From Candidatus Poribacteria bacterium (GTDB taxonomy: Bacteria > Poribacteria > WGA-4E > WGA-3G): a DNA stretch of 64,000 nucleotides. Shown piece by piece: positions 55,165 to 56,184 of the stretch. Position 1 is the stretch's first letter; each line of letters opens with the position of its first letter. The stretch spans positions 1-64,000 of the forward strand of contig JAGFCA010000061.1 in assembly GCA_022394755.1 (NCBI GenBank), given 5' to 3'. The position numbers and the translations under genes are program-made. Under the pieces are notes generated by a model. It saw only the letters and a program-made list of their open reading frames with translations. It searched no databases and was not told the DNA's origin.

Positions 55165-56184
55165 ATGAATTATCAACGGAAGATAATTATCGCATTCTCG
55201 CTATTGATAGGACTATTAATTCTCGGATCCATCGGATATTCAATCCTTGAAAGTGGTAATCCAAGTGGAAATTGGAAGTTACTTGATTCAGTTTTTATGA
55301 CTGTTATCACCCTTACTACGGCAGGACATACCCTTATGGGGATGAGCGATGGTGGTCGTATTTTCACCATTTTTCTCCTCATTGGTGGATACGGGGTCTT
55401 TGTCTATAGTGTTACAATTGCAATTGCTTTTCTAATTGAAGGACAACTCCTTAGTTTATTTAAACAAAGAAAAATGATAAGAACCGTAGAAAAACTATCA
55501 GATCATTATATTGTATGTGGACTCGGTGATACGGGTATACATGTTTTAGAAGAGATGTTGAAATCCGATGTGAATTTTGTTGGGATTGAAGTTGATGAAG
55601 AAAGGTTGGAACATCTTGAGGAAACCTTAGATTTTCTATACATTGAGGGTGATGCAACAGACGATGATGTACTCATACGAGCAGGTATAAAACAGGCAAA
55701 GGGTTTAGTCACATGTTTAAGCCGAGACCAGGATAATCTTTTTGTCGTGATCTCTGCTAAGAACCTTAATCCAAAAATACGTGTTGTTTCAAAAGCTGTT
55801 GAAAATAATTCTCCTGATAAGCTCATGACAGCAGGGGCAGATGAAGTTGTGCTCCCAGACCATATCGGTGGAATTCGACTTGCATCTGGAATACTGGAAC
55901 CTCACCTAATTGATTTTATTTCTAAGATGCAGGAAAGCAGACAAACCGCACGTTTTGCTGAATCTATTGTACAAGTTGAATCTAAACTCGCTGGTGTTTC
56001 TCTCAGAGATTCCCATATTCAGGAAGAAACAGGTTTGGTAGTGATTGCACTGCGAAGTAAGGATGGACAATATATTTATAACCCTTCTGGGGATTGGATA
56101 ATTGAAGATGGGGATGCTTTGTTTGTAATTGCAGATCCAAGTCAACTCCTAATATTAAATAGACTCACAGGTGATCCTCATTAA
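55165..56184 (+). CDS. TrkA-type two-helix channel with non-canonical selectivity filter
   Basis: The 339-residue protein has a first transmembrane helix at about 7-27, a pore helix region 38-50, and a second membrane helix at about 65-91, followed by a regulatory RCK domain: TrkA-N with HYIVCGLGDTG (NAD-binding, 114-124) and a TrkA-C part at about 265-335. The pore signature is TTAGHTL (51-57), where potassium channels have TTVGYGE: valine, tyrosine, second glycine and glutamate are all changed. It may be a non-selective or non-potassium channel, or a ligand-gated regulator. GAGGATA precedes the ATG. It lies 127 bases after the DUF1844 gene. Confidence 0.85.
   Translation: MNYQRKIIIAFSLLIGLLILGSIGYSILESGNPSGNWKLLDSVFMTVITLTTAGHTLMGMSDGGRIFTIFLLIGGYGVFVYSVTIAIAFLIEGQLLSLFKQRKMIRTVEKLSDHYIVCGLGDTGIHVLEEMLKSDVNFVGIEVDEERLEHLEETLDFLYIEGDATDDDVLIRAGIKQAKGLVTCLSRDQDNLFVVISAKNLNPKIRVVSKAVENNSPDKLMTAGADEVVLPDHIGGIRLASGILEPHLIDFISKMQESRQTARFAESIVQVESKLAGVSLRDSHIQEETGLVVIALRSKDGQYIYNPSGDWIIEDGDALFVIADPSQLLILNRLTGDPH

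What the first reader, a model, noticed from the sequence alone, without database searches (positions are those of the whole stretch)
55165..56184. TrkA/RCK channel with filter TTAGHTL instead of TTVGYGE
The pore helix, second membrane helix and NAD-binding RCK domain are normal for a potassium channel, but four of the filter residues differ, including the second glycine. That filter geometry cannot be the standard one, so either ion selectivity changed or the protein became a sensor.
Basis: partly seen in the sequence, partly recalled or inferred. Interest (0 to 1): 0.52.

Follow-up and report, generated by a model that had tools for sequence, protein, structure and literature searches.

The report
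Bacterial ion channel with odd filter
A Candidatus Poribacteria bacterium carries an intact potassium-channel-like protein whose ion filter lacks the usual second glycine, and its relatives show that this supposedly essential glycine has come and gone many times, so what such channels let through is open and testable.

Summary
Window 55165-56184 (+) encodes an intact 339-aa 2TM-RCK channel (nearest solved relative MthK) with filter TTAGHTL instead of TTVGYGD/E. A 92% identical ortholog from another assembly shares TAGHT, so it is not a sequencing slip; only Leu57 is private. The genome is a Poribacterium; 34 of 35 genomes of its family have the gene. The first filter glycine is invariant (124 of 124 tree rows). 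The second is not: 9 of 47 poribacterial orthologs and 21 of 71 relatives from other phyla have it, with at least 24 gains or losses on a 124-row tree. 'GYX' prokaryotic channels are already in print with function unknown, so this is a variant of a known but uncharacterised kind. The poribacterial clade adds loss of the Glu that follows in the other phyla, and an outer loop one residue shorter, which lets the window pore align without a gap there to the NaK2CNG chimeras. Best explanation: an RCK-gated, weakly selective or non-selective monovalent cation channel (inferred, about 0.5). A K+-selective single-glycine filter is the main rival. The sensor idea has no positive evidence. No ion flux was measured.

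The parts
55165..56184 (+). Complete 2TM-RCK channel gene, 339 aa (P0001)
   Evidence: ORF and Pfam domains; best solved relative MthK, E 1.5e-28; Foldseek best hit MthK 6oly, E 9.5e-22
55168..55251 (+). TM1, residues 2-29
   Evidence: AlphaFold2 helix 2-29
55279..55317 (+). Pore helix, residues 39-51
   Evidence: AlphaFold2 helix 39-51; T46, I48, T49 invariant in 45 orthologs
55315..55335 (+). Selectivity filter TTAGHTL, residues 51-57; first glycine is residue 54, second-glycine position is residue 56 (Thr)
   Evidence: conservation; per-codon substitution counts
55336..55353 (+). Outer-mouth loop after the filter, residues 58-63; G54 to F67 is 14 residues, one fewer than in most relatives
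   Evidence: 14 residues in 46 of 47 poribacterial rows, 15 in 58 of 71 others
55348..55437 (+). TM2, residues 62-91
   Evidence: AlphaFold2 helix 62-91
55507..55857 (+). RCK N-lobe (TrkA_N, Rossmann, GLGDTG motif), residues 115-231
   Evidence: G119, G121, G124 invariant in 51 sequences
55957..56148 (+). RCK C-lobe (TrkA_C), residues 265-328

Best explanation
The gene encodes a working tetrameric 2TM-RCK cation channel. Shown: an intact, conserved, core gene of MthK-like architecture whose second filter glycine is replaced, in a lineage where that position is free to vary while the first glycine is fixed. Inferred: the inner filter sites (Thr52 side chain and the carbonyls around Thr52-Gly54) stay, while the outer sites made by the Tyr-Gly part are altered or widened, giving a filter of the CNG/NaK2CNG sort that passes monovalent cations with weak or no K+ preference. 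Opening is set by the cytoplasmic RCK ring, probably by an adenine nucleotide, since the GxGxxG motif is kept and the MthK Ca2+ ligands are not. K+-selective channels are supplied by other genes of the genome.
For: Intact ORF with all domains. Purifying selection. Present in 34 of 35 family genomes and in 11 of 14 further genomes of the order at E <= 1e-80. Second-glycine position: D15 G9 T8 E8 S6 A1 in 47 orthologs, first glycine invariant. The pore aligns without a gap in the filter-to-TM2 stretch to the NaK2CNG chimeras (3k06 TTVGNTPPPQTDFGKIFT, 3k0d TTVGETPPPQTDFGKIFT; query TTAGHTLMGMSDGGRIFT), Thr against Thr at the second-glycine position. NaK2CNG carries the CNG filter ETPP and passes organic cations (PMC6091977, passages); CNGA1 is described as non-selective with a wide filter (PMC13088309, passages). 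NirBac channels with non-TxGYG filters are tetramers that conduct without selectivity (PMC4607889, sections read). [quoted passage not shown] The same genome encodes channels with TIGYGD and TLGFGD filters and a TrkH. MthK D184, E210, E212 align with Cys, Lys, Val here (read from the alignment; residue numbers recalled, D184 and E212 also named in entry titles); GsuK, another RCK channel, is activated by ADP and NAD+ (PMC3510474, passages).
Against: No ion flux was or could be measured. Close orthologs (L008, L010, L014) keep TVGYGDM in the same short loop and may be K+ selective. Most channels lacking the second glycine keep Tyr or Phe before it (112 of all 124 rows have Y or F), which points to a K+-type outer filter rather than a CNG one. 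In other phyla the second glycine is often Lys or Arg (23 of 71), hard to reconcile with a simple open cation mouth. The AlphaFold2 model is a monomer with only moderate confidence at the filter (mean pLDDT 68 for residues 51-60), so filter geometry was not tested.
Confidence: 0.5

Rival explanations
1. The channel is still K+ selective: one glycine suffices, the second-glycine residue lies outside the sites that set selectivity, and substitutions there are close to neutral.
For: G/non-G states are scattered on the tree (at least 24 changes in 124 rows; shuffled labels 30.7 +/- 1.8), as expected if both do nearly the same job. Sister genes differ by one G<->D or G<->E codon (L012 GAC/L013 GGC, L020 GAG/L026 GGC). 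Y/F kept in 112 of 124 rows. Trk/Ktr/HKT pores also keep one glycine per filter (recalled).
Against: Reported loss of selectivity and function on second-glycine mutation in K+ channels (PMC3283738). In the window Tyr and the acidic residue are changed too, and the pore fits NaK2CNG without a gap.
Confidence: 0.33
2. Relaxed constraint on a decaying or redundant pore: the filter is eroding because the genome has canonical K+ channels.
For: dN/dS about 0.63 at codon 56 (8 N, 3 S changes) against 0.094 for the gene; canonical channels elsewhere in the genome.
Against: Pore helix w 0.063, first glycine 0 N/5 S, TM2 0.091; gene in 34 of 35 family genomes. Decay would not spare these.
Confidence: 0.07
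3. Non-conducting sensor: the pore is closed and the protein reports nucleotide or ion state through its RCK domain.
For: RCK N-lobe is among the most conserved regions (mean entropy 0.69 bits).
Against: The pore helix is equally constrained (0.66 bits); no fused output domain and no conserved signalling neighbour found (DUF1844 and ComM flank it).
Confidence: 0.07

Closest known systems
Prokaryotic 'GYX' K+ channel homologues (Kuo et al. 2005 as cited in PMC3283738)
   Same: K+ channel pore with the second glycine replaced; ion selectivity and function unknown
   Different: The poribacterial clade also loses the following Glu (Asp in most, N, H, Q, A, I or L in others) and one outer-loop residue; the window further has Tyr->His and Val->Ala. 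The 2005 review was not readable here.
MthK
   Same: 2TM pore plus one C-terminal RCK domain; best sequence and fold match
   Different: TVGYGD filter; Ca2+ ligand positions not kept here; loop one residue longer
CNG channels and NaK2CNG chimeras
   Same: One filter glycine with Thr at the second-glycine position and the same loop length; non-selective
   Different: CNG channels are 6TM with a cyclic-nucleotide-binding domain (recalled); here 2TM with RCK, no proline run after the filter
NirBac channels (PMC4607889)
   Same: Bacterial 2TM channels of a K+ channel family with aberrant filters that differ between close relatives; shown non-selective
   Different: Kir-type cytoplasmic domain, and the whole P-loop replaced in NirBac1; here an RCK domain and only the outer filter changes
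GsuK
   Same: Bacterial RCK-gated channel; weak K+ selectivity reported (PNa/PK about 0.2, PMC3510474 passages)
   Different: Two RCK domains; filter keeps both glycines (TLGFGD)

Membership tests
2TM-RCK (MthK-type) channel | TM1 - pore loop - TM2 followed by TrkA_N and TrkA_C | tested here: met
2TM-RCK (MthK-type) channel | Ca2+ gating through D184/E210/E212 | tested here: not met
   Aligned residues are C, K, V (read; numbering recalled). Sequence only; not a gating test.
Canonical K+-selective channel | TxGYG/TxGFG signature with both glycines | tested here: not met
   TTAGHTL; second glycine absent in 38 of 47 orthologs
Canonical K+-selective channel | K+ over Na+ selectivity | not testable with these tools
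   needs flux or recording
GYX prokaryotic channel homologues | first filter glycine kept, second replaced, rest of the pore conserved | tested here: met
   definition taken from passages of PMC3283738
CNG channel | 6TM with cyclic-nucleotide-binding domain | tested here: not met
   2TM, RCK only
CNG-like filter (works like) | single glycine, Thr at the second-glycine position, short loop | tested here: met
   ungapped alignment to NaK2CNG chimeras
CNG-like filter (works like) | wide, non-selective pore | not testable with these tools
   no tetramer model or flux
NirBac | Kir-type cytoplasmic domain | tested here: not met
   TrkA_N/TrkA_C instead

The most novel reading that the evidence does not exclude
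Orthologous core channels of one bacterial clade naturally switch between K+-selective (GYGD) and weakly selective or non-selective (GYD, GYE, GYT, AGHT) filters by one or a few codon changes, so that ion selectivity is an evolutionarily labile trait, and the 'essential' second glycine of the K+ signature is dispensable for function in vivo across a large bacterial 2TM-RCK class.
Probability: 0.3. Interest if true: 0.72.

Novelty: new variant of a known kind. Interest (0 to 1): 0.46.

Why it matters
The TxGYG-type signature is described as obligatory for all K+ channels (PMC12332018, passages). Here is a widespread bacterial class in which its first glycine never varies (124 of 124 rows) while its second is missing more often than present (89 of 124), with some sister genes differing by that residue alone in the filter (L030 and L022). 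That is a natural mutant series for asking what the second glycine does for selectivity, conduction and stability, in full-length ligand-gated channels rather than laboratory mutants. It is also a warning that annotation as 'potassium channel' is unproven for a large group of proteins.

Tried and rejected
Assembly error: rejected for A53, H55, T56 (shared by L003); not excluded for L57, since no reads are available.

Indel rather than substitution in the filter: rejected, because sister genes with the same loop length carry GYGN/GYEN or GYGD/GYDD (L026/L020, L013/L012).

Positive selection on the filter: not supported; codon 56 has dN/dS about 0.63 and codon 59 about 0.70 from few changes, that is, relaxed rather than above 1. 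The 18 pairs were chosen by eye from the tree, some inside weakly resolved forks; one drafted pair (L023/L031) was dropped as not sisters before counting.

Gene conversion as source of TAGH in two genera: inconclusive. TAGH needs at least 3 changes on the tree. Nucleotide identity of L003 over residues 53-60 is 0.75 to the best TAGH gene of the other genus and 0.71 to the best gene of its own genus; L001 over 61-75 is 0.89 to L021. The tracts are too short to decide between recombination and convergence.

Functional operon: DUF1844 (32 of the 66 loci L001-L066 searched, many of them too short to hold it) and ComM (31 of 66) flank the gene; among the 80 loci both occur in 9 of 9 poribacterial and 0 of 71 other loci. 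Read as plain synteny, not a pathway.

Structure: one AlphaFold2 job (monomer, pTM 0.58); the second job was not used because no tetramer is offered. Literature searches that gave nothing on this clade: Poribacteria with potassium channel, 0 papers; 2 papers. (H. pylori channel) led nowhere. Statements about print are limited to these searches of an open-licence library.

Full report
What is there. The ORF at 55165-56184 (+) is complete, 339 aa, with no internal stop. Pfam finds Ion_trans_2, TrkA_N and TrkA_C above their cut-offs; MthK is the best sequence match in the PDB (E 1.5e-28) and the best Foldseek match of an AlphaFold2 model (6oly, E 9.5e-22; model mean pLDDT 86, pTM 0.58). The helices are TM1 2-29, pore helix 39-51, TM2 62-91. 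The filter reads T51 T52 A53 G54 H55 T56 L57 where a K+ channel has TTVGYGD or TTVGYGE.

Where it comes from. The closest named records encoding the protein are Candidatus Poribacteria MAGs (9 loci, 64-73% identity). Of 35 genomes of the same family (G000-G034, own included) 34 have the ortholog; the exception, G004, is 81% complete. In 14 further genomes of the order (G035-G048) 11 have a match at E <= 1e-80; G036, G039 and G041, all of one family, do not. It is a core gene, mostly in one full copy per genome.

Is the filter sporadic? No, but it is not fixed either. In 45 full-length orthologs the first glycine is invariant and the second-glycine position holds D15, G9, T8, E8, S4, A1 (entropy 2.31 bits, rank 26 of 339 positions), while pore-helix T46, I48, T49 are invariant. 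Adding the two more distant rows L048 and L049 gives D15 G9 T8 E8 S6 A1 in 47. The window's combination A53+H55+T56 is shared with L003 (92% identical); A53+H55 ('TAGH') is in 8 of 34 family members, in two genera, and H55 never occurs without A53 there. Leu57 is private to the window among the 47.

How wide is it? Of these 71 the first glycine is kept in 71, the second in 21; the others have K13 R10 E7 S6 M5 N5 Q3 A1; the next residue is Glu in 69 and Asp in 2. This sample is biased towards relatives of the window protein. The tree is a quick one with many weakly supported forks and long branches, so 24 is a rough figure. The second glycine is only weakly clustered on the tree.

Selection. 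From 18 sister pairs the gene has dN/dS 0.094, the pore helix 0.063, TM2 0.091, RCK N-lobe 0.062; codon 54 (first glycine) has 0 non-synonymous and 5 synonymous changes, codon 56 8 and 3 (about 0.63), codon 53 about 0.48, codon 59 about 0.70. These single-site values rest on few changes. One pair (L012/L013) differs by a single nucleotide between Asp and Gly at this codon; the Glu/Gly pairs differ by two. The reading is tolerance at the outer filter inside a well-conserved channel, not decay and not demonstrable positive selection.

What it could conduct. Against 15 residues in 58 of the 71 outside relatives, the stretch from the first glycine to the TM2 Phe is 14 residues in 46 of 47 poribacterial rows. 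That makes the window pore align without a gap in this stretch to the NaK2CNG chimeras, in which the CNG filter ETPP was engineered onto NaK (PMC6091977, passages); CNGA1 is described as non-selective with a wide filter in which K+ keeps most of its water (PMC13088309, passages). NirBac channels are the precedent that bacterial 2TM channels with non-TxGYG filters are real, tetrameric and non-selective, and that filters differ between close relatives (PMC4607889, abstract, introduction as shown and sections 3 part 1 and 9). On the other side, most rows keep Tyr or Phe before the second-glycine position (112 of 124), and Lys or Arg there in 23 of 71 outside relatives does not look like a CNG pore. 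I commit to a weakly selective or non-selective RCK-gated cation channel for the window protein at about 0.5, with a K+-selective single-glycine filter at 0.33. None of this is measured.

Gating. G119, G121 and G124 of the GxGxxG motif are invariant in 51 aligned sequences. The residues aligned with the MthK Ca2+ ligands D184, E210, E212 are Cys, Lys, Val (ligand numbers recalled). Adenine nucleotides, as in GsuK (ADP and NAD+, PMC3510474, passages), are the likelier ligands; this is inference.

Genome context. The genome also encodes an ORF with a voltage-gated-type TIGYGD pore (L147), two with a TLGFGD pore (L148 and L149, on one contig), and one TrkH. The five Ion_trans_2 matches are these three, the window gene, and a weaker one (29.4 bits) in a 122-aa frame beside L147 whose filter I did not read. 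So canonical K+ channel pores exist besides this one. Flanks are DUF1844 and ComM, in Poribacteria only.

What is known. [quoted passage not shown] 2005, which I could not read. A 2025 review calls TxVG(Y/F/L)G obligatory for the filter of all K+ channels (PMC12332018, passages). PMC11251424 and PMC8689586 were looked at in passages only and add background. I found no functional study of a GYX 2TM-RCK channel in searches of the open-licence library; subscription papers are not covered. No solved chain among the alignments printed is a natural GYX 2TM-RCK channel; only the top alignments were printed. So the kind is known to exist, and the poribacterial variant (short loop, lost Glu, TAGH) and the quantified lability of the second glycine are what this adds.

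Noticed in passing
L148:523-1689 and L149 (own genome contig C185, about 23.9 and 21.5 kb): Two neighbouring genes with a K+ channel pore (filter TLGFGD) at the C-terminus; L148's N-terminal half is pentapeptide repeats (Pentapeptide_3, 85.4 bits, four stretches). A repeat domain of that kind fused to a channel pore is unusual.
   Followed up: partly
loci L075-L146, position aligned with window residue 56: In relatives from other phyla the second glycine is Lys or Arg in 23 of 71, and the next residue is Glu in 69 of 71: a ring of basic and acidic residues at a cation pore mouth.
   Followed up: partly
L009, L015, L017, position aligned with window residue 52 (55318-55320): Three orthologs also replace the filter Thr of the innermost site (TTVG -> TGVG), a departure at the inner end.
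   Followed up: no
L052, filter region of the channel: A class-level relative has filter STVGLYIGKQGPLS with an apparent two-residue insertion.
   Followed up: no
window 55474-55476 (Met104): A Met just before the RCK domain is nearly invariant, like the internal start that makes the free RCK subunit of MthK (recalled); not tested for internal translation.
   Followed up: no
L049 (G050 contig C185, 4007-5709): A 2TM-RCK gene followed directly by a second RCK-domain stretch on the same strand, a possible two-subunit gating ring.
   Followed up: no
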